Assembly (NCBI GenBank): GCA_022824615.1
Contig: JAJDZM010000202.1
Location: 1 to 34,136 of the forward strand
Length of the DNA: 34,136 nt
Direction: 5' to 3'
Source: Candidatus Binatia bacterium
GTDB taxonomy: Bacteria; Desulfobacterota; Binatia; Bin18
The notes under the pieces were generated by a model. The model had not been told where the DNA came from. It did no database searches and saw only the letters and a list, made by a program, of their open reading frames with translations. Within the stretch, counting starts at the first letter, position 1; every line of letters begins with the position of its first letter. Below, piece after piece: positions 3,402 to 30,768 of this stretch. A program made the translations under genes and the position numbers.

Positions 3402-3456
3402 AAAGAGTAAACGTGTCCTCCAATAGACAGGCAGATGCTGGACACGTCTACTCTTT
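3402..3456 (+). repeat. 55-bp palindromic element, copy A
   Basis: Left arm AAAGAGTAAACGTGTCC, a 21-base centre, right arm GGACACGTCTACTCTTT; the arms pair over 16 of 17 positions. It lies between the converging dehydrogenase and coxG-like genes and could act as a two-way terminator. Its right end supplies the last codons and the TAG stop (3448-3450) of the minus-strand coxG-like gene. Five more copies occur in the window. Confidence 0.9.
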
Positions 3457-3897
3457 GAAATGTTTTGCAACGTTCCGGGCGAACTTGGCTACGATCCTAT
3501 CCGCCTTTTTCCGAATGACGGGTTGGCCAAACTCCCCCAGTTTGCCCATGAGCCGGGCTTCGGTCTGGATGGACAGTTGGGTTTGCGCCTCCTCTTGCTC
3601 GACTAATGTCAGCTCGGCACTAATATGGACGCCGCCGCCAACGCGGCGGTCGTTCGCTTCCGCTCTGCCAACCGCCCGCCAATTTATTTGGTCGAGTTCC
3701 TGTATGCTCAGCTCGCCCTGTAAGGTGAGTCGAATAGGCCCGAATGTGATTTTCATCCGGCCGGCATATTGATCCTCTCCGGTGGCGACAACCTCACTCA
3801 CCCCGGGCATACAAATCGCCATCTGAGGAACATCTATGAGAAAATTCCACAGGGTTTCACGCGCAACCGGGACCGTACAGCTATGCTCAAAGTTCAT
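3448..3897 (-). CDS. coxG: CoxG-like SRPBCC protein
   Basis: This 149-aa protein matches the CoxG/CO dehydrogenase subunit G family, START-like (SRPBCC) fold proteins that accompany molybdenum hydroxylases and in carboxydotrophs help anchor or mature the enzyme. Family features seen are the opening F-E-H-S-C-T-V-P-V-A-R-E-T-L-W-N-F-L-I-D, the CMPGVSEV segment and the YAGRMKITFGPI strand. It is the last gene of the operon: its ATG overlaps the TGA of the FAD subunit as ATGA (3894-3897). There is no C-terminal membrane helix, which some longer CoxG proteins have. The final KHFKE and stop codon lie partly inside palindromic element A, so the native C-terminus may have been altered by that insertion. 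Confidence 0.85.
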   Translation of the reverse strand: MNFEHSCTVPVARETLWNFLIDVPQMAICMPGVSEVVATGEDQYAGRMKITFGPIRLTLQGELSIQELDQINWRAVGRAEANDRRVGGGVHISAELTLVEQEEAQTQLSIQTEARLMGKLGEFGQPVIRKKADRIVAKFARNVAKHFKE

Positions 3898-4778
3898 ACG
3901 TTTCCGCTCGCTCCCCTGGCTTGTGTCACGGCCTGTTCGATGGCTCGCTGGGTAAAGACGACGGCCATGTCACGCTTGTATTCCACCGAGCCGCGAAAGT
4001 CCGCGAGAGGGTCGACCTCTTCCGCAACAAGAGCGGCAGCGGCATGAATAACCTGCGGGGTCGGCGCTTGGCCCCGGAGGGCTGTTTCAACTGCACGTAC
4101 CCGCAGTGGGGTTGCCGCGGCCGCGCCCAAGGCGAGGCGGGCCCGGATAATAGTGTCGCCGTCCAAGGAGACCAGTGCGGCAACGGCAATAGTTGCGTAA
4201 TCGTCATGCGTCTGAGGCAGGAATTTAAGGAAAGCGGTTCCTGTGTCGGCAGGTTGGGGCGGAATGATAACTGTGGTGATGAGCTCTTCGGGTTCGAGCG
4301 CGGTTTCATAATAATCGACAAAAAAGTCGCTCAACTCAATTTCCCGCTCGCCGTGGTGCGATTGGACTCGAAGCCGTGCGTCCAGAACGAGCAACGCGGG
4401 AGGGGGGTCCTGGTTGGGGTCGGCATGCGCCAATGAACCGCCAAGAGTTGCAGCCGTTCGAATCCGGACGCTGGCCACGTGCCGAAAGGTTGTCGCCAAA
4501 AGGGGAAGGCGGTGTTGAATCAGGGCCGAGGTTTCTATGGTCCGGTGCGAACACAACGCCCCAATCGTGAGGCCGCTGTTGGGCCGAATCTCAGCGAGTT
4601 CCGGGCTGTGCGCCAGTTGGCGGAGGCCGATCAGATATGCAGGCTGCACCAGACGTTGCTTCATCAGGTTGATCAGCCCGGTCCCACCAGCCAGGACTTT
4701 GGCGTCTTCGCCGTGCTGTTCAAGCAGAGCCAATACCTCTTCGAGGCTTTCCGGCTCGACATATTCAAAGGTAATCAT
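3894..4778 (-). CDS. Molybdenum hydroxylase FAD-binding subunit (CoxM/XdhB-like)
   Basis: This 294-aa protein is the medium flavin subunit of a xanthine dehydrogenase/CO dehydrogenase-family enzyme; it takes electrons from the 2Fe-2S subunit to FAD and an external acceptor. Visible motifs are KVLAGGTGLINLMK (FAD pyrophosphate loop, usual form AGGTDL) and ATLGGSLAHADPNQDPP (second FAD loop), followed by the CO-dehydrogenase flavoprotein C-terminal domain. The start at 4778 is chosen because its ATG overlaps the stop of the 2Fe-2S gene (ATGA, 4775-4778), the protein then begins with the usual MITFEYVEPESLEEV, and the length is typical. A longer in-frame extension to 4952 has no family similarity. 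It also overlaps the next gene by ATGA, so translation is probably coupled through the operon. Confidence 0.92.
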   Translation of the reverse strand: MITFEYVEPESLEEVLALLEQHGEDAKVLAGGTGLINLMKQRLVQPAYLIGLRQLAHSPELAEIRPNSGLTIGALCSHRTIETSALIQHRLPLLATTFRHVASVRIRTAATLGGSLAHADPNQDPPPALLVLDARLRVQSHHGEREIELSDFFVDYYETALEPEELITTVIIPPQPADTGTAFLKFLPQTHDDYATIAVAALVSLDGDTIIRARLALGAAAATPLRVRAVETALRGQAPTPQVIHAAAALVAEEVDPLADFRGSVEYKRDMAVVFTQRAIEQAVTQARGASGNV

Positions 4779-5245
4779 GTGGAGACCTTTCCGTCCGCCA
4801 CCGCTTGGATCGACTCGATGATTTTGTAATAGCCGGTACAGCGGCACAGATTGCCCATCATCCAGCTTTGAATCTCGTCCTTTGACGGATGGGGGTTTTC
4901 GTCCAATAACGCCTTGGCCGACATGATCTGACCTGGCGTACAAATGCCGCACTGAAAGCCGCCATAATCGATAAACGCTTTTTGGAGCGGGTGCAGTCTG
5001 TCGCCTTCAGTCAGCCCTTCGATGGTGGTGACTTCACAGCCGTCTGCGGTGACCGCGAGAGTCAAACAGGAACTGACGGGCTGACCGTCAAGCAGGACGG
5101 TACACGCTCCGCACACGCCCACGCTACAGCCTTCTTTGGTCCCCGTGAGATCAAGCCCGTTGCGTAACAAGTCGATGAGCAGGGTGTTATCAGGAATGTC
5201 TCGCTCAACCGCTTGGCCGTTGACTCGGAGTTGAATGGGTTTCAT
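4775..5245 (-). CDS. Molybdenum hydroxylase [2Fe-2S] subunit (CoxS/XdhC-like)
   Basis: This 156-aa protein is the small iron-sulfur subunit. The plant-ferredoxin-type cluster is held by Cys40, 45, 48 and 60 (GCSVGVCGACTVLLDG ... SSC), and the helical second cluster by Cys99, 102, 134 and 136 (QCGICTPG and NLCRCTGY). All eight ligands are present and the length matches the family. It lies two bases after the stop of the large subunit gene and overlaps the FAD subunit gene by four bases. The protein carries electrons from the molybdenum site to FAD and would be cytoplasmic; no export signal is seen. Confidence 0.95.
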   Translation of the reverse strand: MKPIQLRVNGQAVERDIPDNTLLIDLLRNGLDLTGTKEGCSVGVCGACTVLLDGQPVSSCLTLAVTADGCEVTTIEGLTEGDRLHPLQKAFIDYGGFQCGICTPGQIMSAKALLDENPHPSKDEIQSWMMGNLCRCTGYYKIIESIQAVADGKVST

Positions 5246-5247
5246 GT

Positions 5248-7545
5248 CTAGCTGTTTCCCCTACGCATCGTTCTTGAACGTGCTGTTTTTTCTCGGAGGG
5301 CCGCATAGACTTTTTCTGCGGTTACGGGCAAATCCATCAGACGAACCCCCACCGCATCAAAGACGGCGTTTGCCACCGCGGCCGGTACAGCCACATTGCT
5401 ATGCTCGCCAATGGCCTTGCCCTCATATGGGGCAGGGCCGGCGTCGCTTTCGACCAGCACGGTTTTCATCTCTGGAATATCCATGCTGGTCGGCAGTTTA
5501 TAGTCACCCAGATGAACATTCGTCACGGCTCCGTCCTGCACAATCAGATGTTCGGTCAGGGCGTGGCCGACCCCTTGGATCGCCCCGCCTTCAACTTGTC
5601 CCTGATGGGTGAGCGGATTGAGAACCGTGCCGACATCGTGCGCAGTGGTGAGTTTCTGCAGGGTCACCTGGCCGGTTGCCGGGTCAACTTCGACTTCGGC
5701 TATTTGAGCGCAGAATGAGGTTACATCCATGGGGGCTTCCGCTACATATTCTCCGGTATAGCGTAACGGCAGCTCTTCCCGGTCGGCGAGTGCGGCCATC
5801 AGCGTGGGAAGGGTAAGGCGCTGTTCGTTCGTATTCACAAACTCACCCGCCCGATATGCAACCTGCTCCGACGGAGTTTCCATATGACGCGCTGCAAATG
5901 CGGTGAGCCCTTCCTTTAACCTTTGAACAGCGGCAAGGGTCGCCTGGCCGGCCATATGCGTCAGACGACTTCCCCCGGCACCTACTTCCCAAGGGGCGGA
6001 GTCGGTACTCCCCTGTACGACCCGGACGGATTCCAAAGGGACCTGTAATTCTTCAGCCACAACCTGCTGTAGAACCGTATACGAGCCGGTACCGGTATCG
6101 GCCGCTCCCGTCATAAGGGTCAGCGTAGCGTCGGCAGCTATGCTCAAGGTTGCACTCGACGGCCCAAAAGCGCCCGGCTCACGGTCATACATGCCTATGC
6201 CGCGCCCTCTATTGGCTGCCTTTTCTGCGCCCCACTTTGCTTCCTTAGCTGCGGCCTCCAGCGTCTCTTTGCAGCGAATTTTCTTCCACTTTTCACCCAG
6301 CGGGGCGGCGTCGCCTTCGATGAGCGTATTGCGGAGCCGAAACTCCAAGGGATCAAGCCCCAGTTCCTGGGCAATGAGGTCCATATGGCTCTCAACCCCA
6401 AAAACGATCTGCGGCGCACCCGGTGCGCGCATATGCCCGGCGGGCACGGTGTTGGTGTAGACCCGGAAGACTTCAATCTCGACATTGGGCATCCGATACG
6501 GACCGGCGGCATGAACACTGCCGTGCACGGTATGCAGGGGCGTGAAGGCGCTATAGGCCCCGCAGCTAAAAACCAGCCTGGCCTTGCGGGCAACAATCCG
6601 GCCGTCGGCGTCTACGCCGGTCCGGAGCGTAATGACTGCCGGATGACGCGGATTGCCGGCTAACAGTTCTTCGGTATAGCTCATAACCATTTTGACCGGT
6701 CGGCCGGCGGCTGCGGCCAAGTGATAGCACACGACGCTATCCATGAGTGAGCCTTTTCCCCCAAAATCACCGCCAATAGGCGCGGTGTTGACGCACACAC
6801 GGTCCTCGGCCACATCGAGCGCAGCCGCAAACTGAGCCTGGGCCACAAAGGGGGTCTTATTGGAAATCCACAGATTGACTTTGCCGTCCGGCTCAATCTG
6901 GACGACGCTGGCGTGCGGCTCGATATAGCCCTGATGAACCGGGGGAATGGTAAACGTATGGGTAAACTCGCGAGCGGCTTGGGCAAAGCCGGCTTCAATA
7001 TCACCATGGGTGTAGAATACCTGTGACACCACGTTGGGAATGTCGGGGTACAGACGGTCATCACCCGGATGCACAAAATCGGGCACAGGAGGATGGGTAT
7101 AGGTGCTGGTGTCGGCATGGACGCGCGGTGCATCTTCCTGCATGGCCTTGACCGGATCAAAGACCGCAGGCAAAGCTTCATACTCGACCGCTATGCGGGT
7201 AAGGGCTTCCTCGGCAATATCCATGGACTCAGCCGCCACCGCGACCACCTTCTCGCCCACAAAACGGACCACATCACGCGCGAGGACGGGCTTGTCCAAA
7301 AAGAAACGACCGATACGGCGGTCCGGCAGCTCCGCACCGGTAATGACCGCGTGGACACCGGCCAGCGCTTTTGCCTGCGAGGTATCAATCGAGACAATGC
7401 GTGCGTGGGGAAACGGGCTGCGCAGGCATTTGCCATACAGCAAACCGGGCAGACGAATATCCGCGGTATAGCGGGCCTGCCCGGTTACTTTTGACGGTCC
7501 TTCTACATGGCCCGCCGGTTGCCCAACGCTGGCTAAATCCATCAT
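5248..7545 (-). CDS. Molybdopterin-binding large subunit, xanthine dehydrogenase/CoxL family
   Basis: This 765-aa catalytic subunit starts with the aldehyde oxidase a/b hammerhead domain (SKVTGQARYTADI through VEYEALPAV), followed by the molybdopterin domain (PIGGDFGGKG about residues 256-265, the GHMRAPGAPQ loop about 370-380, GGSRLTHMAGQA) and the catalytic-glutamate loop KAIGEHSNVAVPAA near residue 714. The loop that is AYRCSFR in true form I CO dehydrogenase is GHMRAPGAPQ here, so CO is not the expected substrate; an aromatic, heterocyclic or aldehyde compound is more likely. The start at 7545 is chosen over a GTG at 7557 because GGAGGG precedes it with normal spacing. It is the first gene of the L-S-M-G operon and diverges from the 109-aa gene. 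Confidence 0.9.
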   Translation of the reverse strand: MMDLASVGQPAGHVEGPSKVTGQARYTADIRLPGLLYGKCLRSPFPHARIVSIDTSQAKALAGVHAVITGAELPDRRIGRFFLDKPVLARDVVRFVGEKVVAVAAESMDIAEEALTRIAVEYEALPAVFDPVKAMQEDAPRVHADTSTYTHPPVPDFVHPGDDRLYPDIPNVVSQVFYTHGDIEAGFAQAAREFTHTFTIPPVHQGYIEPHASVVQIEPDGKVNLWISNKTPFVAQAQFAAALDVAEDRVCVNTAPIGGDFGGKGSLMDSVVCYHLAAAAGRPVKMVMSYTEELLAGNPRHPAVITLRTGVDADGRIVARKARLVFSCGAYSAFTPLHTVHGSVHAAGPYRMPNVEIEVFRVYTNTVPAGHMRAPGAPQIVFGVESHMDLIAQELGLDPLEFRLRNTLIEGDAAPLGEKWKKIRCKETLEAAAKEAKWGAEKAANRGRGIGMYDREPGAFGPSSATLSIAADATLTLMTGAADTGTGSYTVLQQVVAEELQVPLESVRVVQGSTDSAPWEVGAGGSRLTHMAGQATLAAVQRLKEGLTAFAARHMETPSEQVAYRAGEFVNTNEQRLTLPTLMAALADREELPLRYTGEYVAEAPMDVTSFCAQIAEVEVDPATGQVTLQKLTTAHDVGTVLNPLTHQGQVEGGAIQGVGHALTEHLIVQDGAVTNVHLGDYKLPTSMDIPEMKTVLVESDAGPAPYEGKAIGEHSNVAVPAAVANAVFDAVGVRLMDLPVTAEKVYAALREKTARSRTMRRGNS

Positions 7546-7625
7546 AGTGCCCTCCACAGTCAGACACGACCCAAAGTACGGATATCGTCATGAATCCTTT
7601 TCACAGTCAAGCGCCGCAGGCTAGA

Positions 7626-9449: not shown

Positions 9450-9701
9450 ATGGCAACAAAAAAAGATATCGCTCTGGTAAGAGAATTGCGGCCTAGTAAC
9501 CCAACAGAAGAACAGGTGTCGGCAAAGGAGCCTGCTCTGATAGAAGAATTTCGACTCACGAGTCTGGCTGGAGAATTTGAGCAGCATAGCCAGGCAGAAA
9601 TCGAACGTTTGGGCAGTGAGAATCCTGATTTTGACGAGCAACCCTACCACGAAGCCGTCTCCCTCGTCCTGCGGAAACTCGGCCGGTATCGAAAAGAGTA
9701 A
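9450..9701 (+). CDS. Hypothetical 83-aa acidic protein coupled to the YhaN-like ATPase
   Basis: I do not recognise this family. It is small, charged and probably mostly helical (EEQVSAKEPALIEEF, SLAGEFEQHSQAEIERL, YHEAVSLVLRKLGRYRKE), with no signal or membrane helix. GGGAGG sits just upstream of the ATG. Its stop is 11 bases before the ATG of the Rad50/YhaN-like ATPase, so the two are almost certainly co-transcribed and the protein may be a partner or regulator. The stop codon region (AAAAGAGTAA) resembles the arm of the palindromic element but no right arm follows. Confidence 0.75.
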   Translation: MATKKDIALVRELRPSNPTEEQVSAKEPALIEEFRLTSLAGEFEQHSQAEIERLGSENPDFDEQPYHEAVSLVLRKLGRYRKE

Positions 9702-9712
9702 AGGAAACTTTC

Positions 9713-13217: not shown

Positions 13218-13272
13218 AATGAGTAAACGTGTCCTCCAATAAACATGCAGTTGCTGGACACGTTTAGTTATC
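13218..13272 (+). repeat. 55-bp palindromic element, copy B (decayed right arm)
   Basis: Left arm GAGTAAACGTGTCC is intact, and the right arm reads GGACACGTTTAGTTATC, so the outer five bases have diverged. It begins four bases after the stop of the acyl-CoA dehydrogenase gene. The centre also differs from copies A and D at several bases. Confidence 0.85.
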
Positions 13273-16317: not shown

Positions 16318-19300
16318 ATGTTAGCACGTTGGGCACAGAAGATTTTTGGAAGCAAAAACGAACGCGAGCTCAAGCGTATGCGTCCGTTGGTGGAAGAGAT
16401 TGGCCAGCTTGAACCCGAACTGCAAGCGCTCAGCATGGATGAGCTGCGAGCGAAAACGGATATATTCCGCAGTCGAATCCAAGAGGCCACTGCGGCGACA
16501 CGGGCACAGTTGGACGAGGTTGCCCAGCAGGCGGCCGAAATTACTCCAGAGGGCATTCCTGACGAAGATGATCTGGAGAAGCTGGACTACTTCCAGGAGG
16601 AACGAACGATCCTGGAAAAAGAACTCCGCACGGCTGAAGCTGATGTGCTCGACGACATTCTGCCCGAAGCCTATGCCACCGTCCGCGAAGTCTCGCATCG
16701 AGTCACCGGCATGCGCCATTTTGATAGCCAGCTCCTTGGCGGTATTGTCCTCCATCAGGGCCGCATTGCCGAGATGAAAACGGGCGAGGGAAAGACGCTG
16801 GTGGCAACTCTGCCTCTCTATCTCAACGCCCTGCTCGGTCGCGGGTCGCATCTGGTAACGGTCAATGACTATCTGGCCCGCCGTGACGTGCAGTGGATGG
16901 GGCCTATTTATCATGCCCTGGGGCTGTCCGTTGCTTCTAGCGTACATGACGCGAGTTTTCTCTTTGACCCGACCCATGTGGTCAAAGATTATCGCTATAT
17001 GAATCTTCGTCCGGTCAGCCGCAAAGAGGCCTATGCGGCCGATATCACCTACGGAACGAATAACGAATACGGCTTCGACTACTTACGCGATAACATGAAG
17101 TTCAATCTTGAAGATTATGTTCAGCGTGAGTTGCATTTTGCCATTGTTGATGAAGTGGATAACATCTTGATTGACGAAGCCCGGACGCCGCTGATTATTT
17201 CCGGTCCGGCAGAAGAATCCACCCAGAAATATTACTCGCTCAATCGGGTCATCCCACGTCTCCAGCGTGAGATGGATTATGCCATTGACGAAAAACTCAG
17301 AACCGCAACGCTCACCGAAGAGGGGGTGGCGAAAGTTGAGCGTATTCTCGGCGTGCGTAACCTGTATGACCCGTCTGAGATCGGGACCTTGCACCATGTC
17401 AACCAGGCGCTGAAAGCCCATGCCATTTTTAAGCGCGATGTTGACTATGTGATTAAGGATGGTGAAGTCGTTATCGTTGATGAATTCACCGGCCGCCTCA
17501 TGCCCGGCCGGCGCTGGTCGGACGGGCTGCATCAGGCTGTCGAAGCCAAGGAGGGTGTCCGGATTCGTGAGGAAAATCAAACTCTTGCGAGTATCACGAT
17601 CCAGAACTACTTCCGCATGTACGACAAATTGGGAGGCATGACCGGGACCGCGGATACGGAAGCGGTTGAATTCAAGAAAATCTACGACCTCGACGTGGTG
17701 GTTATTCCACCCAACCGCCCCATGGTCCGGGCGGATCATCCTGACGTGGTGTACAAGACCGAGCGCGAGAAATTCGAGGCTGTGATTGCCGACATCCTCG
17801 ACTGTCACGAACGGGGACAACCCGTGTTGGTTGGGACAATTTCAGTCGAAAAGTCCGAACATCTCGGCAGACTCCTCAAGCGAAAAAAGGTCAAGCACAA
17901 CGTCTTGAATGCGGTCAACCATGAAGCTGAGGCAAACATTATTGCCCAGGCAGGTCGTTTTGGTGCAGTGACGATTGCCACGAATATGGCTGGCCGGGGG
18001 ACAGATATTTTGCTTGGTGGAAACCCGGAATTCCTGGCCCGCTCCGATATTGAAAAAAAATGGGTCAACAAGGCCAGTGCTGCTCGGACCAAAAAAGGCG
18101 CAAAAACAGCGGCCACAACAGAAAAGAGTTACGAAGATCAGCTAGAAGAAATCCGTGCAGAATATAACACCGAGATCGCCCAGGCCCAGGAAAAATATGA
18201 ACCTGAATGGACTCCCTTCGAGGAGGCCCGCAACGCGGCCTTGAAGCGGATGACGGAGACCTATCGTCCCTACCTCCACGCCACGCTACAGAAAGCCCGG
18301 GCCGACTATCAAGAGGCTTCGCGTGTGTTTGTTGAGTCCGTTGAGTCTTCAGGGTCTTTAGGGTCAGGACTCAACAGACCCAATGACTCAACGAACCCAA
18401 AAGACCCCCTTTCAGCGGCGCAATTGGAGACGTATGGCCAAGCCCGAGAAGCGTATGAGTCAGCATTATCAGAATATGACAAGGTGGTCGGTCCAGCGCT
18501 GAACGAAGAACAACAACAGGAATATGAGACTGCGCGTGCCGATTTCATTGCGGTATTAACTGAAGATGGAACAAGGGAGGGAGAAGCATCTGAGCGCCTG
18601 AACCTGAACCGAAGCCGCTACGAAGGCTGGCTGGAAGATTACGGTTGGTCCATTATCCAGATGGCCGGCTTAGCCCTGAGTGAAAACGGCCGGGTACAAG
18701 AGGGATACGAAGACGCACGCCGGGCGTATGAAGAAAACCAACAAGCCTACCAGGACGCGGACCAACACTATGAAGAGGCACGGAAACCGTATGAAGCCGC
18801 TGTTGCTGAGGCAGAGCGTGTATATGAGCAAAAACGCAAAGATCATGTTCAGGTCATAGAAGAGGTCCGGGAACAACTTGAGAAAGCTCCTGACGCGTAT
18901 AGCCAGGATTTCAACGAAATTCTTGAGAAGTACGAGCAAACGTGCAGCGAGGAGCGAGAAAAGGTTGTTGCTGCCGGTGGTGTACACATTTTGGGCACCG
19001 AGCGCCACGAGTCCCGGCGCATTGATAATCAACTCCGCGGACGTGCGGGCCGCCAGGGAGACCCTGGTTCATCCCGATTTTTCCTCTCGCTCGAAGATGA
19101 CCTCCTGCGCATTTTTGGCGCAGAGCGCGTCCAGAAGATAATGGACCGGCTGGGCATGGAAGAGGGGGAACCCATAGAAGCCGGACTCGTCACCCGGGCA
19201 ATCGAAAACGCCCAGGGGCGCGTCGAGGGCCATAACTTCGACATCCGAAAACACCTGCTGGAATATGACGATGTCATTAACAAGCAGCGTGAAGTCATCT

Positions 19301-20058
19301 ATGAGCAGCGCAGGGGATTCCTGTCCGGTGAGAACCTGAAAGGTCAGGTGCTGGAAATTGTTGAAGGGATGGCTGAAGAAAGTGTGCTGAACTATGCGGA
19401 TAAAGGAATCGACCCGACGGAGTGGGACTGGAAAGGGCTTGATGACACGGTGTTTCGTCAATTCAATATGCGTCTTGGCCTGAGTGAGGAACAGCAAGAA
19501 GAACTGATAACGGAAGACCTCCAAGACCTGGTGCGGGACCGGGCGCTCCAACACTATGAAGAGCGTGAACAGGCTTTTACACCGCCCGTTATGCGGTATC
19601 TCGAAAAGGTGATCATGCTGCAAACCATGGACAGCCTGTGGAAAGATCACCTGTTTGCCATGGATCACCTCAAAGAAGGGATTGGACTGCGCGGCTACGG
19701 TCAGAAAAATCCTTTGCAAGAGTATAAGAAAGAGGCCTTTAATCTTTTTGATGACCTCTCCCGTCGGATGCAGGAAGATGTGGTTGAGAAGCTCTATAGT
19801 GTCCAAGTGGCGCGCCAGGAAGATGTCCAGCGGATGGAGGAAGGGCAGGCTGCCCAACGGCCCATGCAGATGCTGCACGGCGGACAGGCCGCTCTTCAAC
19901 AGCCACAGCCGGAAACGCCCCCAGCACCTGGGAGACCGGACACCCCGCCGCGGGCGGCAAGACCCGTCCAGACCGTACGGGATACACCCAAGGTTGGTCG
20001 GAACGCCCCCTGTCCGTGTGGCAGCGGCAAGAAATACAAGAAATGTCACGGCGCATAA
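16318..20058 (+). CDS. secA: Protein translocase ATPase SecA, with a very large coiled-coil insertion
   Basis: SecA drives preprotein export through SecYEG. Walker A is MKTGEGKTL (residues 153-161), the DEAD-type motif is [15 protein letters not shown] (278-), and the second helicase domain has [15 protein letters not shown] (to Asn569) and [29 protein letters not shown]. The C-terminus has the zinc motif with Cys1232, Cys1234, Cys1243 and His1244. At 1246 aa it is far longer than the usual 830-1000. About 318 residues (570-887) separate LLGGN from GGVHILGTE, where E. coli SecA has about 36. The insertion is charged and helical with recurring Y-x-x-A-R/Y-E-x-A patterns. About 50 further residues (near 65-115) are added before the DDILPEAYA helix. 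Residues 672-698 are encoded by a short DNA repeat. The stop overlaps palindromic element C by one base. Confidence 0.96.
18331..18410 (+). repeat. GGGTCTTTT/GACTCAAC repeat, in frame inside secA
   Basis: The left half contains GTTGAGTC twice and then GGGTC units; the right half contains GACTCAAC, AGACCC, GACTCAAC and AACCCAAAAGACCCC, so the two halves are inverted copies. It adds about 27 residues rich in S, G, N, P and D to SecA without breaking the frame. The same units form the gatA-gatB spacer at 24017-24076. Confidence 0.8.
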
Positions 20059-20088
20059 AAGAGTAGATGCCGAACACGTTTACTCTTT
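20058..20088 (+). repeat. Palindromic element, compact 31-bp copy C
   Basis: It reads AAAGAGTA, then GATGCCGAACACG, then TTTACTCTTT. Compared with copies A and D it lacks about 24 central-left bases, joining the outer left arm to the right half. An 8-bp stem (AAAGAGTA/TACTCTTT) remains. It starts on the last base of the secA stop codon and ends 11 bases before the argJ ATG. Confidence 0.85.
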
Positions 20089-21308: not shown

Positions 21309-22514
21309 TTAGCGGCCCTTGGGCAGTTGGAGGACGCGTTCTGCGATGATGTTACGCAGGATCTCGGAGGTGCCGCCCTCAATGGTATTGGCCCGGGCGC
21401 GGAGAAAGCCGTACTGCCAATAATGTTCCGCTTCGGCCTCGTCATAGAGCTGACCGGCCGTCCCCTGCATCTCGACGGCGAGGTCTTGCATGCGCTGGTT
21501 GGTTTCGGCCCAATGCAGCTTGGCAATTGAGCCTTCCGGCCCGGCCGGATTGCCGCGCAGCAGCCGCGTCAAGGCGCGATAATTATTCAGCTTTAGGACC
21601 TCGCAATCGATATATGCCTGGGCCATTTTCTGGCGGAACCGACGGTCTGTCCGGCCTGAGCCTGTCCTGAGCCCAGTCGAAGAGGCTGAGCCGGCATCGC
21701 ACAGCCAGGCACGCAGGTCGTCGTAGGTCCGTTTTTGGGCAAAGGTAAAATAGAAACCCAGCCCCTGCCGTTCAAACATGAGCGAGGTGATAATGACCTT
21801 CCAGCCTTGGTTCACTTCTCCCAGAATATTGGCCTTGGGAACCTGGACGTTCTCGAAAAAGACCTCGTTAAATTCGCTCTCACCGGTCATGGTCCGCAGC
21901 GGCTGAATCGTAATACCCGGACTCTTCATATCCACCAGGAGGGCTGATAGCCCCTGATGTTTCGGCGCGTCCGGGTCGGTCCGTACCAGGAGTAAGCACC
22001 AGTTGGCGTAGCGGGCTAAACTCGTCCACACTTTCTGGCCGTTGACTAAAAAATAATCGCCCCGGTCAACCGCGCGGGTCTGGAGCGAGCCCAGGTCCGA
22101 GCCCGAGTTCGGCTCGGAATAGCCCTGGCTCCAGATATCCGCACCACTCAAGATAGCGGCGAGATGTTTCTTTTTCTGCTCTTCCGTCCCATAGACGATA
22201 ATCGTCGGTCCGACGATCTCCAAACCCAGGACATTGAGCAACCCAGGCGCTTTGTGGTTGGCCATTTCTTCATCAAAGATCATCCGTTCAATCAGAGAGG
22301 CACCACGGCCTCCGTACTCTTTGGGCCAGGAAATCCCGGCCCAGCCGCCCTCAAAGACCGTGCGCTGCCAGTCTTTCAGAAAGGCGAGGTCCGCGGCTGA
22401 GGCCTGTGGCTGAAGGTGACGCAGCGAGCCATTGTTGTGTGGAACGTTGGCCGCGAGCCAGGTGCGGAGTTCCTGCCGAAAGGTCTCCTGCGCTGGGGTA
22501 AAATGAAAATCCAT
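21309..22514 (-). CDS. Acyl-CoA dehydrogenase family protein with repeat-derived insertion
   Basis: This 401-aa flavoprotein has the standard acyl-CoA dehydrogenase layout: MDFHFTPAQETFRQELRTWL at the start, SQGYSEPNSGSDLGSLQTRA and NGQKVWTSLARYANWCLLLVRT in the middle domain, and EGGTSEILRNIIAERVLQLPKGR at the end. The start at 22514 is chosen because AGGAGC lies upstream and the protein then begins at the conserved helix; the longer in-frame extension overlaps gatB and has no similarity. Residues about 275-288 (AGSASSTGLRTGSG) are encoded by a dispersed DNA repeat and fall in a loop just before the FRQKMAQAYIDCEVLKL helix. It follows gatB by 31 bases and could be read from the same transcript. 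The substrate is unknown. Confidence 0.92.
   Translation of the reverse strand: MDFHFTPAQETFRQELRTWLAANVPHNNGSLRHLQPQASAADLAFLKDWQRTVFEGGWAGISWPKEYGGRGASLIERMIFDEEMANHKAPGLLNVLGLEIVGPTIIVYGTEEQKKKHLAAILSGADIWSQGYSEPNSGSDLGSLQTRAVDRGDYFLVNGQKVWTSLARYANWCLLLVRTDPDAPKHQGLSALLVDMKSPGITIQPLRTMTGESEFNEVFFENVQVPKANILGEVNQGWKVIITSLMFERQGLGFYFTFAQKRTYDDLRAWLCDAGSASSTGLRTGSGRTDRRFRQKMAQAYIDCEVLKLNNYRALTRLLRGNPAGPEGSIAKLHWAETNQRMQDLAVEMQGTAGQLYDEAEAEHYWQYGFLRARANTIEGGTSEILRNIIAERVLQLPKGR
21654..21692 (-). repeat. GCCTGTCCTGAG...GTCGAAG repeat inside the acyl-CoA dehydrogenase gene
   Basis: The plus strand reads GCCTGAGCCTGTCCTGAG then CCCAGTCGAAG then AGGCTGAGCCGG. The flanks GCCTGAGCC and GGCTGAGCC give it a partial inverted-repeat character. 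A second copy of the core lies at 23666-23688 in gatB. It keeps the reading frame. Confidence 0.75.
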
Positions 22515-22545: not shown

Positions 22546-24015
22546 CTATTGGGAAAGCTGTTGCCGTAAGAGAGTATTGACCATCTGGGGGTTGGCCTTG
22601 CCCTGGGTGGCGCGCATGACCTGCCCGACAAAGAAGCCGAGCAGTTTTTCTCTGCCGCCACGATAGGCCTCCACTTTATCCGGGTTGGCCGTCAATACTT
22701 CAGTAATAGCAGCCTGCAAAGTGTCGGTATCACTGACCTGGCGCAGTCCCTTGGCCTCGATGATCTCTTCCGGTGGATGACCGGTTTGGCGCATTTCCTC
22801 GTAGATGGTCTTGGCGATGGTTGTGCTGATGGTGCCGTCCTGTATCAACCCGATTAACATACCCAAGTGCTCGGGCGAACACGGCCAGGTCTCGATCTTC
22901 AGCGCCGCGTCCAGTTTTTCTTCTTTGACGAAGCGCAGCACGCTGTCCATAACCCAGTTGCTGACGACTTTGGGTACTGCGGGGCAGGCGCGTACGCTGG
23001 CCTCGAAATAGTCCGCCACATCCTTGCGGGCCGTCAGTACCTCGGCATCATAAACCGGCAGGCCGTAGTCGTGTATGAAGCGCGCCCGTCGCGCAGCCGG
23101 CAACTCGGGCAGGTCGGCTTGAACGTGTTCGACCCAGGCCTGGTCCACGACCAGGGGTAACAAATCCGGGTCGGGGAAATAGCGGTAATCGTGGGCAAAC
23201 TCCTTGCTGCGCATGGGCCGGGTCACCTCCCGGTCTGCATCCCAGAGGCGGGTTTCCTGGACGACCCGGCCGCCAGCTTCGACGACCTCGGACTGGCGCT
23301 GAATTTCATGCTCAATCGCCTTTTCAACGGCTCGAAACGAATTGAGGTTCTTGATCTCTGTTCTGGTGCCGAGTTCGGCGTTTCCCTGCGGACGTATGGA
23401 GACGTTGGCATCACAGCGCAGGCTGCCTTCTTCCATATTGCCGTCACAAACTTCGATATATTGGAGCAGAGTCCGCAAGCTGCGCAGATAATGACCCGCT
23501 TCCGCGGCAGACCGAATATCCGGTTCGCTGACAATCTCTAAGAGGGGCACACCGGTACGATTCAGGTCAACAAGACTCGCGCCCGCCTCGGCATCATGAA
23601 TGCTCTTGCCGGCGTCTTCCTCCATATGAATCCGGGTTAAGCACACCTTTTTTGCTTGGCCTTGGGCCTGTCCTGAGTCCGGTCGAAGGGCGGCGACCTC
23701 AACATGGCCGTGTTCGGCAATGGGCAGCTCGTACATGCTGATCTGGTAGCCCTTGGGCAGGTCGGGATAAAAATAGTTTTTTCGCGCCCAACGGCTCGTG
23801 GGCGCGATCGTGCAGTGCGTGGCCAGTGCGGCGCGAAGGGCGAAATCGACGACCTTCTTATTGAGTACGGGCAAGACCCCGGGCAGACCCAGGCAGACCG
23901 GGCAGGTATGCTGGTTGGGCGCTGCACCAAAGCGGGTCGAACAGCCACAAAAAATTTTCGACTCGGTCAGCAACTGCGCGTGCACTTCCAGGCCAATGAC
24001 GGATTCGTAGGGCAT
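22546..24015 (-). CDS. gatB: Asp-tRNA(Asn)/Glu-tRNA(Gln) amidotransferase subunit B
   Basis: GatB binds the mischarged tRNA and activates it by phosphorylation in the GatCAB amidotransferase. The 489-aa protein opens [18 protein letters not shown], has the zinc cysteines Cys23, 25, 38 and 41 (FCGC ... CPVC), [29 protein letters not shown], and the C-terminal YqeY-like tRNA-binding domain. The start at 24015 is chosen because conservation begins there; an in-frame TTG at 24075 would add a P-K-D-P stretch encoded by a DNA repeat. The ribosome-binding site candidate AAAGGA lies within that repeat. Residues about 109-121 ([13 protein letters not shown]) come from a second dispersed repeat and replace a normal beta-hairpin loop before the [12 protein letters not shown] segment. 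Confidence 0.95.
23666..23688 (-). repeat. GCCTGTCCTGAG...GTCGAAG repeat inside gatB
   Basis: GCCTGTCCTGAG is followed by TCCGGTCGAAG, differing from the copy at 21654-21692 at two positions of the shared 23-base core. It is in frame and encodes part of a surface-loop-like stretch (PDSGQAQG) in GatB. Confidence 0.75.
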
Positions 24016-24016
24016 A

Positions 24017-24076
24017 GGGTCCTTTGGGTCTTTTGGGTTCTTGGGGTCTTTTGGGTCAAGACTCAACAGACTCAAC
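24017..24076. repeat. GGGTCTTTT/GACTCAAC repeat between gatA and gatB
   Basis: Units GGGTCCTTT, GGGTCTTTT, GGGTTCTTG, GGGTCTTTT and GGGTC are followed by AAGACTCAACAGACTCAAC. It fills essentially the whole spacer between the gatA stop and the gatB start on the minus strand and appears to contribute the gatB ribosome-binding site. It shares its units with the copy inside secA. Confidence 0.8.
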
Positions 24077-25539: not shown

Positions 25540-25541
25540 GT

Positions 25542-25879: not shown

Positions 25880-25934
25880 AAAGAGTAAACGTGTCCTCCC
25901 ATAGACAGGCAGATGCTGGACACGTTTACTCTTC
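25880..25934 (+). repeat. 55-bp palindromic element, copy D
   Basis: Left arm AAAGAGTAAACGTGTCC and right arm GGACACGTTTACTCTTC pair over 16 of 17 positions. The centre differs from copy A by one base. Unlike other copies it lies between divergent genes (gatC and yraN), where it could affect both promoters. Confidence 0.9.
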
Positions 25935-26391: not shown

Positions 26392-27669
26392 ATGCTTGAT
26401 ATTAAACTGATCCGAGACAACCCGGAAGAAGTAAAAAAACGCCTGGCAACAGTGGGTGTTCCAGGTTCCGACGTTGACGCTCTGCTCAATAGTGATCGAG
26501 TCCGGCGCGCGCGCATAAACGAAGTCGAGACACTGCGTGCCGAACGCACGAAGCGTTCAAAAGACATCCGAAAAATTTCAGCTCCTACCGAGCGAGACTC
26601 CGCTGTCCGATCCATGCGAGCGCTCGGAGAGCGTGTGAGCCAACTGGAGAAACAACTCGTTCAGGAGGAAAAAGACTTCCAGCAGCGGCTCCTCGAGTTG
26701 CCAAACCTGCCCCACCCAGACGTCCCGGTTGGGCAAGACGAAGACGAAAATGTCGTCATCCGAACGGAGGGCAAACCGTCGGATTTTGCGTTTTCTCCTC
26801 GGCCGCACTGGGAACTGGGCGTAGCCTTGGGCATCATTGATTTTGAGCGCGGGGTAAAAATTTCGGGCACTCGCTTTTATATCCTCAAAGGACTTGGCGC
26901 CCGACTCCAGCGCGCGCTGATTAGCTGGATGCTGGACCTGCATGTCAATGAACACGGCTATACCGAAATATACCCACCGGCCATGGTGAAACAGGATTGT
27001 TTGGTTGGGACGGGTAACCTGCCAAAATTCGGGGACAATCTCTACCGGGATATTGAGGAAGACTTTTGGTTTATTCCTTCGGCAGAAGTGCCCGTGACCA
27101 ATCTGTATAGAGAAGAAGTGATCGAACCCGGACAGCTTCCGTTGTATCATGTGGCGTATACGCCGTGCTTCCGCCGGGAGAAAATGTCTGCGGGTCGCGA
27201 TGTTCGTGGCATTAAACGTGGCCATCAGTTCGACAAGGTCGAAATGGTAAAATTTGTTGAGCCTTCACAATCGGATGCAGAGTTGCTGGCGCTGGTCGAC
27301 AATGCGGAAGATGTGTGCCGCAAACTCAACATCCCGCATCGGGTCGTTCAGATGTGTACCGGAGACCTGAGTTTTGTTGCGGCCTGCAAATATGATGTGG
27401 AAATGTGGGCGCCGGGTTGTGCGGAATGGCTCGAAGTGAGTTCCTGCTCCAATTTTCGTGATTTCCAGGCCCGTCGGGCGAAAATCCGGTATCGGCCCGA
27501 ACCTGGCGCAAAACCTGATTTCGTGCACACCCTGAACGGTTCCGGACTCGCCCTCCCACGGGTTGTCATCGCTATTCTTGAAAACTACCAACAAGAAGAT
27601 GGGAGCGTTGTCATACCCCATGTCCTTCGCCCCTATATGGGGGGACGGGAGAAAATCGATACGGCTTAA
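26392..27669 (+). CDS. serS: Seryl-tRNA synthetase
   Basis: This 425-aa class II synthetase charges tRNA(Ser). The N-terminal coiled-coil arm that binds the long variable loop of tRNA(Ser) is present (LRAERTKRSKDIRKI through QLEKQLVQEEKDFQQRLLELPNLPH region). Class II motif 2 is PCFRREKMSAGRDVRGIKRGHQFDKVEM in outline, and motif 3 is NGSGLALPRVVIAILENYQ. The C-terminus is IPHVLRPYMGGREKI. The start at 26392 is chosen because MLDIKLIRDNPEEVKKRL is the family's standard beginning; an upstream ATG in frame overlaps yraN. Confidence 0.96.
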   Translation: MLDIKLIRDNPEEVKKRLATVGVPGSDVDALLNSDRVRRARINEVETLRAERTKRSKDIRKISAPTERDSAVRSMRALGERVSQLEKQLVQEEKDFQQRLLELPNLPHPDVPVGQDEDENVVIRTEGKPSDFAFSPRPHWELGVALGIIDFERGVKISGTRFYILKGLGARLQRALISWMLDLHVNEHGYTEIYPPAMVKQDCLVGTGNLPKFGDNLYRDIEEDFWFIPSAEVPVTNLYREEVIEPGQLPLYHVAYTPCFRREKMSAGRDVRGIKRGHQFDKVEMVKFVEPSQSDAELLALVDNAEDVCRKLNIPHRVVQMCTGDLSFVAACKYDVEMWAPGCAEWLEVSSCSNFRDFQARRAKIRYRPEPGAKPDFVHTLNGSGLALPRVVIAILENYQQEDGSVVIPHVLRPYMGGREKIDTA

Positions 27670-27754
27670 TGATTCGCTCCGTGAGGGGGTGAGGGGGAGT
27701 TGACGACTCAGGGGCAGCCCGTTACTAAATTGCCCAAGAAAACGGCGAAACTCT

Positions 27755-28114
27755 GTGGCAGAAGACGCGCACAAACCAGCGTCCGGTCAGGATGTCGAAA
27801 ATACCATCGAGGACCTGACGAAAGAACTGTCTCGCTTAATCAACGAAGCTGGGACGGACGGACGTGAAGAATTGCGTGACTATGCAATAAGCCTGCTACA
27901 GGGTGAAACGGAAACAACACAAACGGAAGAGCCCGTGGGGGAAGATTCGGCTCAGCCTTCTACCCCTTTTAGCCCAGTTGCTTTGAGCATTCCATTTCTG
28001 CTTATTGGTATTATTCTCCTCCCGCTTTTCGCTCCAGTAGGGCTGCTGATGTTGTTGTTGGCGATAATCATGGGGGTAGGGGGTTGGCTGGCTCTCATGT
28101 TCAGAAGAAAATAA
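27755..28114 (+). CDS. Hypothetical small protein with acidic N-terminus and membrane hairpin
   Basis: I do not recognise this 119-aa family. The first 70 residues are polar and acidic (EDLTKELSRLI, ETETTQTEEPVGED); the rest is two closely spaced hydrophobic helices (LSIPFLLIGIILLPLF and VGLLMLLLAIIMGVGGWLALM) ending in FRRK, which suggests a C-terminal membrane hairpin with a cytoplasmic N-terminal part. The start is GTG without a clear ribosome-binding site, so it is uncertain. It lies 85 bases after serS and 40 bases before the Rieske gene, in the same direction, so it may be the first gene of the respiratory operon. Confidence 0.6.
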   Translation: MAEDAHKPASGQDVENTIEDLTKELSRLINEAGTDGREELRDYAISLLQGETETTQTEEPVGEDSAQPSTPFSPVALSIPFLLIGIILLPLFAPVGLLMLLLAIIMGVGGWLALMFRRK

Positions 28115-28154
28115 AAGAACCAGGCAGAATCACTCTCACTAAGGAGTAAGTTCC

Positions 28155-28757
28155 ATGGCAAAAAAACCAACTTCTCCTGAAGAAATCCAGGAATACGAGG
28201 AGCGTCGCCGTGTTGAGCAACGGGCGGAGCGTGAGAAACGACTCCGTGAACGCGCGCAACGGGGTGGCTTGTGGTCTCGGCGTGATTTTTTTGGACGGCT
28301 CAGCTGGGGCGGTTTTGGGCTGGTTTCGCTCGTGAGCCTGCTCGCCTTTGTCCGCTCAGCCTTTCCTCGGGTGCTCTTCGTCCCGCCATCAACCTTCAAG
28401 GCAGGCTTTCCTGGAGACTACCCGGTGGGCGAAGTGAGCGAGAAATACCGGTCAGATCAACGCACCTGGATCGTTCGAGAACCGCAAGGCTTCTACGCCA
28501 TCTTTGCCAATTGTACGCACCTCGGCTGTACTCCCCGCTGGTCGTCGTCGGAGAATAAATACAAATGTCCCTGTCACGGCAGCGGCTATTATCGCACGGG
28601 CTATAACTTTGAAGGCCCGGCCCCACGGCCCATGGATCGCTTTAAGTTATCCTTGGCTGACGACGGTCAACTCTTAGTTGATAAAAGCAAGATATTTAAG
28701 ATGCAGCCTGGCGTTGACCCTAATAAACAACACCCCGACAGCATTTTGCGCATTTAG
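28155..28757 (+). CDS. Rieske [2Fe-2S] protein of a cytochrome bc/b6f-type complex
   Basis: This 200-aa protein carries the high-potential 2Fe-2S cluster that takes the first electron from quinol. The ligands are Cys120 and His122 (NCTHLGC) and Cys138 and His141 (CPCHGS), with Cys125 and Cys140 placed for the stabilising disulfide. A long charged N-terminal helix (residues 8-37) precedes a twin-arginine-like motif SRRDFFGR (41-48) and a hydrophobic anchor (about 50-68), consistent with Tat insertion as an uncleaved membrane anchor. GPAPRPMDRFKL is the conserved proline loop region. AAGGAG lies before the ATG. The cytochrome b6 gene follows 39 bases after the stop. Confidence 0.95.
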   Translation: MAKKPTSPEEIQEYEERRRVEQRAEREKRLRERAQRGGLWSRRDFFGRLSWGGFGLVSLVSLLAFVRSAFPRVLFVPPSTFKAGFPGDYPVGEVSEKYRSDQRTWIVREPQGFYAIFANCTHLGCTPRWSSSENKYKCPCHGSGYYRTGYNFEGPAPRPMDRFKLSLADDGQLLVDKSKIFKMQPGVDPNKQHPDSILRI

Positions 28758-28796
28758 CTGCCAGTGGAAAAGCGAGTGTAAAGGCAAGGAAAGAGT

Positions 28797-29570
28797 ATGA
28801 GCAGCCAATTTGATGAACTCAAACGCCAGGTCATGGAGTCACAGGTCTGGCAGTCCATTTTCCGCCACGGCTACGAAGATACACCACGCAACCGCATTCT
28901 GATGGTCTCGGGCAATGTCTGGCTCCATCTACACCCCTCGAAAGTCCGCAAACATGCCACGCGCCTGCGTTTCACCTGGTGTATGGGCGGCATTACCTTT
29001 CTGATGTATTTGGTCACCGTAGTCACTGGCGTGTATCTCATGTTCTATTACCGCCCGGTGGCGGAATACGCCTACGCCGACATTAAATATCTCGAATTTG
29101 ACATGCCGTTTGGTATGTTGATGCGTAATATGCACCGCTGGGCTGCCCACGGCATGGTGATTGCCGTCTGGCTGCATATGTTTCGCGTCTTTATGACGGG
29201 CTCGTATAAGCCCCCACGTGAGTTTAACTGGGTCGTCGGTGTCCTGCTCTTAGTCTTGACCTTGCTTCTCTCGTTTACCGGATACCTCCTGCCGTGGGAC
29301 CAGCTTGCTATCTGGGCTGTTTCGGTCGGATCGAATATGGGCCGGGCAACCCCGCTGTTGGGATATGAAGGGCCTTTCAACGAGGTGCTCGGGGTGAACC
29401 CGATTTACGATGCCCGCGCTTTTCTCTTTGGCGGCGGAGAGATTGGGGCACATACCTTACTCCGTTTCTATATTTTGCACTGTATTTTTATTCCATTGGT
29501 AACGAGCCTATTTCTGGCGGTTCATTTCTGGCGTATCCGGCGCGACGGATTCTCGGGGCCAGCCCTCTAG
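28797..29570 (+). CDS. Cytochrome b6-type subunit (N-terminal cytochrome b)
   Basis: This 257-aa membrane protein holds the two b haems of a quinol oxidoreductase. Ligand pairs are His113/His127 (14 apart, HRWAAHGMVIAVWLHMFR) and His228/His243 (15 apart, RFYILHCIFIPLVTSLFLAVHF), the spacing of b6-type proteins. SFTGYLLPWDQ is the conserved Q-site segment. Cys62 in TWCMGGITF aligns with the cysteine that attaches haem c_i (c_n) in b6f complexes. The N-terminus has about 50 extra polar residues. It ends RRDGFSGPAL as b6 proteins do, the rest of cytochrome b being a separate subunit. AAGGA precedes the start. Confidence 0.95.
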   Translation: MSSQFDELKRQVMESQVWQSIFRHGYEDTPRNRILMVSGNVWLHLHPSKVRKHATRLRFTWCMGGITFLMYLVTVVTGVYLMFYYRPVAEYAYADIKYLEFDMPFGMLMRNMHRWAAHGMVIAVWLHMFRVFMTGSYKPPREFNWVVGVLLLVLTLLLSFTGYLLPWDQLAIWAVSVGSNMGRATPLLGYEGPFNEVLGVNPIYDARAFLFGGGEIGAHTLLRFYILHCIFIPLVTSLFLAVHFWRIRRDGFSGPAL

Positions 29571-29582
29571 TCGAGGTCTCTT

Positions 29583-29678
29583 ATGCGCGTACTTGCGATT
29601 CCCATTTTAGTTGGCGTTGTGTGCTGGCTGCTGTACGTAGTGGCGAAACCCAAGGCGTCTTCTTCGGAAGACCAATAA
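29583..29678 (+). CDS. Putative 31-aa single-helix subunit
   Basis: An ATG frame of 31 codons encodes MRVLAIPILVGVVCWLLYVV followed by a polar tail (AKPKASSSEDQ). It is one clear transmembrane helix. CGAGG lies six to seven bases upstream. It begins 12 bases after cytochrome b6 and ends 15 bases before subunit IV, filling the gap between them. Size and topology resemble PetG/PetL/PetN, the one-helix subunits of b6f complexes, but no sequence match is claimed; it may also be a chance frame. Confidence 0.55.
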   Translation: MRVLAIPILVGVVCWLLYVVAKPKASSSEDQ

Positions 29679-29693
29679 GATAAGGAAGCTGTT

Positions 29694-30491
29694 ATGGCGG
29701 AAATGGGCTCAGCGGCCACGCGAGTCGAAGTCACGCTCAAGAAAGCGACCGGCCCCGGCGACGATAAGGTCCATACTTGGCCGAATCTGGTTCGAGCAGA
29801 ATTCCTCTGCACGCTGTTTGTCATGATCTTCCTGCTCTTATGGTCGCTGCTGGTCGATGCGCCGCTTGAAGAGCCAGCCGACCCTGGGCGCACGCCCAAC
29901 CCATCTAAAGCGCCCTGGTATTTCCTTGGACTACAAGAAATATTGGTCTTTTTCGACCCCTGGCATGCCGGAGTGGTGGCGCCCACCTTTATCATCATGG
30001 GACTGATGGTCATTCCCTATATCGATATCAATCCCAAGGGAAACGGCTATTACACGTTTCAAGAACGAAAATATGAAATCATAACCTTCATCTTTGGCTT
30101 CCATGTGCTGTGGATTTCAACCATTATTATCGGCACCTTTGTCAGAGGGCCGGGCTGGAACTGGTTTTGGCCCTGGGAGGTGTGGGACGCCCACCTAGTT
30201 GAAGCCCTGACCAACCAGGACCTGCCCTATCTGGTTGGTATCCGGGACTATTGGACCGCAGCCGTCTTTGGCCTGTCACTCATCATTGGTTTCTTTGTGC
30301 TGGGGACCGCTGCCATGTATTGGTGGGTGGTGTGGCTCAAGGGCCGTGAATTTATGCAGCGCTGGGGCGCGGCTCGATTTTTCTTAACGTCATTTCTCAC
30401 GCTGAATATGATTGCCGTAGTGATTAAGATGCTGCTGCGTCATATACTGAATGTCAAATATATTTTAGTCACGCCGTGGATTAATGTCTGA
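29694..30491 (+). CDS. Subunit IV-type cytochrome b C-terminal protein
   Basis: This 265-aa protein corresponds to the C-terminal half of cytochrome b (PetD-like), forming part of the quinol-oxidation site. In place of the usual PEWY the motif reads KAPWYFLGLQE (Ala73-Pro74-Trp75-Tyr76), a form seen in cytochrome b proteins of several Deltaproteobacteria-like groups. DPWHAGVVAPTFIIMGLMVIPYID is the following conserved helix. About six hydrophobic helices can be counted, more than the three of plastid PetD, with an additional tail of WV-rich helices (YWTAAVFGLSLIIGFFVLG, FFLTSFLTLNMIAVVIKMLL). The stop codon is immediately followed by palindromic element E. Confidence 0.92.
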   Translation: MAEMGSAATRVEVTLKKATGPGDDKVHTWPNLVRAEFLCTLFVMIFLLLWSLLVDAPLEEPADPGRTPNPSKAPWYFLGLQEILVFFDPWHAGVVAPTFIIMGLMVIPYIDINPKGNGYYTFQERKYEIITFIFGFHVLWISTIIIGTFVRGPGWNWFWPWEVWDAHLVEALTNQDLPYLVGIRDYWTAAVFGLSLIIGFFVLGTAAMYWWVVWLKGREFMQRWGAARFFLTSFLTLNMIAVVIKMLLRHILNVKYILVTPWINV

Positions 30492-30545
30492 AAAGAGTAA
30501 ACGTATCCAGCATCGAGTATCCATAGGAGAACCTGTTTACTCTTT
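30492..30545 (-). repeat. 54-bp palindromic element, copy E (reverse orientation)
   Basis: Left arm AAAGAGTAAACGTATCC, right arm GAACCTGTTTACTCTTT, centre AGCATCGAGTATCCATAGG. The centre matches the reverse complement of copies A and D, so it is inverted relative to them. It starts on the base after the subunit IV stop codon and ends on the base before the ATG of the 58-aa gene. Confidence 0.88.
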
Positions 30546-30722
30546 ATGATGTTCTATCTGGCAAAAATTCTTCAGGCGCTTGGGATTGCAGACGTTGGAT
30601 ACGCTTTATTCGTTGGGCTGACTGAAGAAAAGAGTATGGGTAAGGAATTATGGCTCCTTGGGATTGGGGTGGTGGTGTTTTATCTGGGTCGCTTCCTTGA
30701 GACGCGCGCAAGCAAAGAGTAA
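30546..30722 (+). CDS. Small 58-aa membrane protein between two palindromic elements
   Basis: The frame begins ATGATG at 30546 and encodes 58 residues with two hydrophobic stretches (YLAKILQALGIADVGYALFVGL and LWLLGIGVVVFYLGRFL). It sits inside the respiratory operon between subunit IV and the large cytochrome c. Its start abuts element E, and its last codons AAA GAG TAA are the first bases of element F. No ribosome-binding site is visible other than GGAGAA inside element E (30526-30531), which is rather far. Small two-helix proteins of this kind occur near bc complexes in other bacteria; function unknown. Confidence 0.65.
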   Translation: MMFYLAKILQALGIADVGYALFVGLTEEKSMGKELWLLGIGVVVFYLGRFLETRASKE

Positions 30723-30768
30723 ACGTATCCAGCATCTCATATCTATTAGGAGGACACGTTTACTCTTT
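30714..30768 (-). repeat. 55-bp palindromic element, copy F (reverse orientation)
   Basis: Left arm AAAGAGTAAACGTATCC, right arm GGACACGTTTACTCTTT; the centre AGCATCTCATATCTATTA matches the reverse orientation like copy E. It supplies the KE-stop end of the 58-aa gene and ends 19 bases before the start of the large cytochrome c gene. Confidence 0.9.

What the first reader, a model, noticed from the sequence alone, without database searches (positions are those of the whole stretch)
3402..30768. Six-copy family of ~55-bp palindromic elements at gene boundaries
Copies at 3402, 13218, 20058, 25880, 30492 and 30714 share 17-base arms (AAAGAGTAAACGTGTCC / GGACACGTTTACTCTTT) and a conserved 20-base centre, in both orientations. 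Centres are conserved although they do not pair, so this is a replicating or spread element, not merely independent terminators. No transposase is encoded here, and the copies have no obvious target duplication. It could be a MITE/REP-type element that was also recruited as a two-way terminator.
Basis: seen in the sequence. Interest (0 to 1): 0.7.

Follow-up and report, generated by a model that had tools for sequence, protein, structure and literature searches.

The report
Mobile, self-flipping DNA hairpin family
Dozens of copies of a 54-base DNA hairpin have hopped around the genomes of two related groups of uncultured bacteria, landing cleanly at gene ends or adding 18 amino acids inside proteins, and their middle part sometimes flips over in place.

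Summary
The family is genome-wide and found in two genera only (9 of 16 family genomes; 0 of 117 other phylum genomes sampled). Seven syntenic genomes show a non-autonomous mobile hairpin of 54-55 bp. At 13 of 30 sites with an alignable other allele, filled and empty differ by exactly the element, without target duplication; several gains are species-specific. Afterwards copies diverge at about the rate of non-coding flanks. At 9 of 37 orthologous sites the centre is inverted in place, the published signature of replication template switching. Copies also lie inside predicted ORFs (14 of 105 sites); in two clear cases the protein gains exactly 18 residues. The terminator idea is not supported: spacer types match background and no T-tract follows. 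It is not a standard REP/REPIN: no GTAG/CGTC tag, and RAYT-type genes are detected in only 3 of 7 genus genomes, never beside this element. The mobilising enzyme was not found.

The parts
3402..3456 (+). Element copy, 55 bp, between convergent genes; the predicted - strand gene 3448-3897 ends at a stop inside its right arm
   Evidence: Shared with G001, G002, G003, G004; centre inverted in G003.
9693..9702 (+). Remnant (AAAGAGTAAA) of a copy that is intact in G003; the junction sequence in G004 is empty
13218..13272 (+). Element copy with AATGAG outer variant and degraded right arm; exact empty site in G004 (against one of the other filled copies); centre inverted relative to G002 and G003; G003 has GAGG/CCTC on both arms
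20058..20088 (+). Deletion product of a copy (most of left arm and centre lost), overlapping the stop codon of the SecA gene; intact copy in G002
25880..25934 (+). Element copy, 55 bp, between divergent GatC and SerRS genes; exact empty site in G001, G004, G005; centre inverted in G002
30492..30545 (-). Element copy directly after the stop of the cytochrome b-type gene 29694-30491; same orientation in G001-G005; shorter deletion product in G006
30714..30768 (-). Element copy present in G000 and G003 only; empty (1 bp off exact) in G001, G002, G004, empty with a small local duplication in G005 and G006
   Evidence: tree.

Best explanation
The sequences are copies of a non-autonomous mobile palindromic element, a 54-55 bp hairpin with two 17-base arms and a roughly 20-base centre. 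Shown by comparison of species: it is gained (and at some sites perhaps lost) as an exact unit with no target duplication, can sit in frame inside proteins or supply the stop codon at a gene's end, afterwards diverges at about the neutral rate, decays by short deletions, and its centre inverts in place. Inferred: the inversions and the joint arm changes come from DNA polymerase switching templates within the hairpin. Inferred and unproven: the folded single strand is the mobile form and is moved in trans by an enzyme not yet identified, most simply a single-strand (HuH/Y1-type) transposase that is lost from, missing in, or too divergent to detect in most of these genomes. A role for the host is not needed to explain the pattern.
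For: Copy number and lineage restriction. Arms and centre over 91 distinct sequences. Exact presence/absence: 13 of 30 sites with an alignable other allele; 8 more within 1-2 bp of exact (one of these, site 24, against a deletion remnant); 9 others. No TSD excess over 91 copies. Lineage-specific gains: site 29 in G005 only, five other genomes empty including its nearest relative G001; sites 18 and 19 in G001 with G005 empty; 30714 in G000/G003 only; tree. In-place inversion: 8 of 37 orthologous sites, plus 13218, whose degraded G000 copy that count dropped; site-specific centre variants are kept, so it is inversion, not replacement. Both arms changed alike at 4 of these sites; positions differing on both arms 14 against 6.5 expected if independent. 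Divergence: arms 7.0%, centre 10.3%, non-coding flanks 9.1% (58 pairs). Exactly 18 extra residues against orthologues at 2 sites. Spacer inversion with arm homogenisation is the described product of template switching between inverted repeats (PMC8604942, abstract read).
Against: No mobilising enzyme was found. Direction is not certain at every site: 25880 and 13218 are filled in G000, G002 and G003 (25880 only as a truncated copy in G003) but exactly empty in G004, which on the tree needs a precise loss, local exchange or parallel gain. Most arm differences between orthologues (162 of 169 pairwise) are not matched changes, so arm homogenisation is occasional. Arms diverge slightly less than flanks (7.0 against 9.1%), leaving room for weak constraint; pairs are not independent. 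The excess of lengths divisible by 3 inside ORFs (12 of 14 against 72 of 113 overall) is not significant (p = 0.08). One site in G002 and in G008 (the other genus) carries the exact consensus although flanks differ by 16%, which neutral decay does not predict. The target bias, and a deficit of complementary flank bases (12 against 28.8 expected at offset 2), fit no transposase that I know.
Confidence: 0.72

Rival explanations
1. A REPIN/REP family moved by a RAYT (Y1 REP-associated tyrosine transposase), with each arm a REP.
For: Same general design (two conserved 16-17 base ends in inverted orientation around a spacer, hairpin, many copies); REPIN description in PMC3116915 (passages). RAYT-type genes exist in G000, G003 and G005.
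Against: No GTAG or CGTC in the consensus. PF01797 not detected in 4 of 7 genus genomes, including the single-contig, 98% complete G006, which has many copies. None of the four loci found carries the element; three of them show other palindromic repeats near the gene, judged by eye (L175 was not printed in full).
Confidence: 0.15
2. A host-functional RNA or DNA signal (two-way terminator, mRNA stabiliser or protein-binding dyad) kept by selection.
For: Copies fold well as single-stranded DNA (z-scores -2.9 to -7.7 for the six window copies); many are at gene ends; 97% of arm cells pair, and the covariation score exceeds all 500 shuffles.
Against: Spacer types do not differ from background; no T-tract; copies exactly absent in related species; near-neutral divergence; copies inside ORFs; centre orientation not preserved; recency of copying and template switching can both give paired arms.
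Confidence: 0.07
3. A MITE derived from a dsDNA (DDE-type) insertion sequence with the arms as terminal inverted repeats.
For: 17-base terminal inverted repeats; several bacterial small repeats are of this kind (PMC2229807, passages).
Against: No target duplication; no full-length relative with the same ends seen in the loci examined; no match in the phage or plasmid collections. Whole genomes were not read for such an IS.
Confidence: 0.06

Closest known systems
Rickettsia palindromic elements (RPE)
   Same: Palindromic, non-autonomous, spread in one lineage, both intergenic and in frame inside conserved protein genes (PMC2229807, passages).
   Different: RPEs are 105-146 bp in that review; this one is 54-55 bp, often gives the gene its stop codon, and shows in-place inversion of the centre. 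No RPE sequence was compared here.
REPINs (REP doublets forming hairpins)
   Same: Two conserved ends in inverted orientation, spacer, hairpin, many copies (PMC3116915, passages).
   Different: No GTAG/CGTC tag, no linked RAYT found, whole unit 54-55 bp against 71 bp between the 16-mer starts of the GI REPINs described there.
CGTC-tagged REPs
   Same: Palindromic repeat families that apparently lack a dedicated transposase (PMC3733652, abstract and outline).
   Different: No CGTC in the consensus.
Bacterial MITEs (RUP, NEMIS/Correia, ERIC, YPAL)
   Same: Small, non-autonomous, inverted repeats, intergenic and sometimes in frame (PMC2229807, passages).
   Different: That review gives most of them TA ends and target duplications; this element has neither.

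Membership tests
REP / REPIN | GTAG (or CGTC) tetranucleotide next to the palindrome | tested here: not met
   Neither motif on either strand of the consensus.
REP / REPIN | Associated RAYT gene flanked by the same element | tested here: not met
   PF01797 in 3 of 7 genus genomes, 4 loci; element absent from those loci of 2.8-3.3 kb.
REP / REPIN | Inverted conserved ends with spacer forming a hairpin, many copies | tested here: met
Classical MITE | Target site duplication | tested here: not met
   91 copies, no excess at lengths 2-11; exact empty alleles.
Classical MITE | Parent IS with the same ends | tested here: inconclusive
   None seen in fetched loci, phages or plasmids; whole genomes were not read in full.
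Rickettsia palindromic element | Palindrome inserted in frame in protein genes | tested here: met
   14 of 105 sites in predicted ORFs; exactly 18 residues extra against orthologues at 2 sites, 22-28 gapped columns at 2 more, no informative orthologue for most others.
Rickettsia palindromic element | Sequence similarity to an RPE family | not tested
   No RPE sequence was fetched.
Intrinsic terminator | T run after the stem; enrichment at convergent gene ends | tested here: not met
Template-switch inversion of an inverted-repeat spacer | Spacer inverted in place with arm homogenisation | tested here: met
   9 of 37 sites inverted; both arms changed alike at 4 sites. The mechanism itself is inferred.

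The most novel reading that the evidence does not exclude
The hairpin spreads without any dedicated transposase: replication or repair copies the folded single strand, and the same strand-switching that flips the centre also, rarely, pastes the hairpin at a new place, so that the element is a self-templating parasite of the replication fork.
Probability: 0.1. Interest if true: 0.9.

Novelty: new variant of a known kind. Interest (0 to 1): 0.52.

Why it matters
It gives a clean natural record of how a very small hairpin behaves as mobile DNA: exact, duplication-free gain, in-frame entry into proteins, flipping in place and decay, all readable across seven syntenic genomes. It also warns that covarying hairpin arms and opposite orientations can come from the mutation mechanism, not from selection on RNA or from separate insertions. 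It sharpens the open question of what moves palindromic repeats that have no RAYT.

Tried and rejected
Rfam at gathering thresholds: no match in the window. RAYT link: rejected as above. Phage and plasmid collections: no match; three viral contigs matching the inner arm pattern are, by eye, unrelated hairpins. An apparent strand bias of arms at 1.9-2.9 Mb of G006 was a listing artefact; paired arms are there. An EM search for a one-sided target motif gave only weak signal; GC at -5/-4 or at +4/+5 occurs on one side at 46 of 113 sites, on both at 1, on neither at 66. A recurrent gene between neighbouring copies was sought and not seen in 38 pairs. Covariation as proof of an RNA function was rejected: only 2 of 17 pairs change on both sides, which 348 of 500 shuffles reach; cells with a double change (1 of 500), percentage paired (0 of 500) and covariation score (0 of 500) do exceed shuffles, but recent copying and template switching explain that. 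Genes were called with a home-made codon-usage script, not a standard gene finder. Of the 23 genes that it calls in the window, 10 were scanned against Pfam.

Rows dropped: 8 of 113 sites had short flanks; one search kept 216 of 230 hits (both ends and enough flank present); one search needed both flanks; one search dropped pairs with flank identity under 70%; the flip at site 7 is below the score limit used for the 37 sites. Loci L111-L141 were used although the listing shows no names for them; unnamed loci are counted as separate genomes.
Full report
What is there. The window is contig C65 of draft genome G000. The window has copies at 3402-3456, 13218-13272, 25880-25934, 30492-30545 and 30714-30768, a 31-base deletion product at 20058-20088 and a 10-base stub at 9693-9702. 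Arm matches are 10 against 0.03 expected. Over 91 distinct sequences the consensus is AAAGAGTAAACGTGTCC - TCCAATAGACATGAGATGCT - GGACACGTTTACTCTTT; the outermost letters vary more than those next to them. At 113 distinct sites the length is 54 (61 sites) or 55 (29), and 2 copies equal the consensus.

How widespread. The arm 14-mer with up to 2 mismatches has 134 + 133 hits in the own genome against 18 + 9 for the reversed control. With up to 1 mismatch the seven genus genomes have 50-103 hits per strand, the second genus g2 4-11, and the seven other family genomes 0-1, which is the control level. A covariance model finds it at E up to 0.01 in 9 of 16 family genomes, all in g1 and g2, and at E up to 0.001, with stricter filters, in none of the 117 other genomes of a 118-genome phylum sample. 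Counts are capped and count strands apart; one search gives 49 matches in the own genome. Most g2 copies printed belong to a variant with GAGG/CCTC or GAGT/ACTC arms and a GTTGACAC right side.

It moves, exactly. I fetched the syntenic regions of the six genus relatives and built a table of 33 sites. For 30 sites some other genome had an alignable allele. At 13 of these at least one other allele differs from a filled one by exactly the element, at 8 more by 1-2 bp of that (one against a deletion remnant), and 9 are partial deletions, further copies below threshold, rearrangements or other repeats. No excess of flanking direct repeats exists (lengths 2-11). On the tree of eight window genes ((G000,G003),G004), G002, (G006,(G001,G005)), site 29 is a gain in G005, sites 18 and 19 gains in G001, and 30714 a gain before the G000/G003 split, by parsimony. 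Against a gain-only history, 25880 and 13218 are filled in G000, G002 and G003 (25880 truncated in G003) but exactly empty in G004.

It flips. At orthologous sites the centre is inverted in place while keeping that site's own variants: 3402 (G003 against four others), 25880 (G000 against G002), 13218 (G000 against G002 and G003), and others. One search counts 8 of 37 sites; 13218 is among the 37 as an unflipped G002/G003 pair because the degraded G000 copy was dropped, so the total is 9. Both arms changed alike at 4 sites (for example GAGT/ACTC to GAGG/CCTC at 13218 in G003), but 162 of 169 pairwise arm differences are not such matched changes; positions differing on both arms number 14 against 6.5 expected if independent. 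Inverted spacers plus homogenised arms are the published outcome of template switching between inverted repeats (PMC8604942, abstract). This explains why copies occur in both orientations, and why arm covariation here is no proof of an RNA function.

It decays and is tolerated. Between orthologous copies (58 pairs, not independent) divergence is 7.0% in arms, 10.3% in the centre and 9.1% in non-coding flanks. Of 105 assessable sites, 65 are in tandem, 19 in divergent and 7 in convergent spacers, not different from all spacers (p = 0.16), and 14 are inside predicted ORFs. At 16 of 79 neighbouring gene 3' ends the predicted stop lies 9 bases into the element, that is, the TAA (or variant) of AAAGAGTAA. 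Inside ORFs length is divisible by 3 in 12 of 14, against 72 of 113 overall (p = 0.08). Against orthologues without it, two proteins have exactly 18 extra residues (an acyl-CoA dehydrogenase-like protein of G005, whose G000 orthologue is window 21309-22514, and L023) and two have differences of 22-28 gapped columns (L301, L185); the rest had no informative orthologue or also carry the element.

What moves it. Not found. PF01797 is detected in 3 of 7 genus genomes (4 loci); the element is absent from all four loci, and the three printed in full show other palindromic repeats, by eye. No recognised transposase was seen between 38 close pairs (by eye, not by a family search). The target shows a two-sided avoidance (A at -6 in 4 of 113, T at +6 in 2 of 113; about 24 expected each), a weak GC preference usually on one side, and fewer complementary flank bases than expected (12 against 28.8 at offset 2). 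Exact, duplication-free entry of a hairpin fits single-strand transposition best, but that step is inference.

Is it known? Searches of the held library for Binatota with repeat (10 of 15 papers listed) and with palindromic (2 papers, listing), and for spacer inversion with repetitive extragenic palindromes (8 of 162 listed), showed no title or abstract start describing this element; a 2025 survey of REPs has no hit for Binat- or the arm sequence in its main text (PMC12306157, word search). That is limited to open-licence papers. In kind it resembles RPEs and REPINs; by the tests above it is neither a standard REP nor a classical MITE.

Unexplained. In G002 and in G008 (the other genus) one shared site carries the exact consensus, inverted between the two, although the surrounding 2.7 kb is 84% identical.

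Noticed in passing
window 18324-18407 (also 24015-24075): A second dispersed palindromic family (GTTGAGTC/GGGTC type, about 80 bp) lies in frame inside the SecA gene; SecA of five relatives aligns with 16-24 gapped residues, most of them in this stretch, and G002 has its own version.
   Followed up: partly
window 712-884: A third dispersed repeat, about 77-97% identical over about 65-170 bp at tens of places in several genus genomes.
   Followed up: no
L172, L173, L174: RAYT-type genes with other palindromic repeats close by (GTAGGTCGG..., TGTAGGGGCAACC..., GGGAGCGCGGGCATCTTG...), so several REP systems seem to coexist in the genus.
   Followed up: partly
L310:1501-1554 and L064:6355-6408: Exact-consensus copies at one orthologous site in two genera, inverted relative to each other, in flanks that differ by 16%.
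   Followed up: partly
G004:C17:27001-216000 and like stretches: Copies cluster near the window region while long stretches (the first 189 kb fetched of G004) have no significant copy.
   Followed up: no
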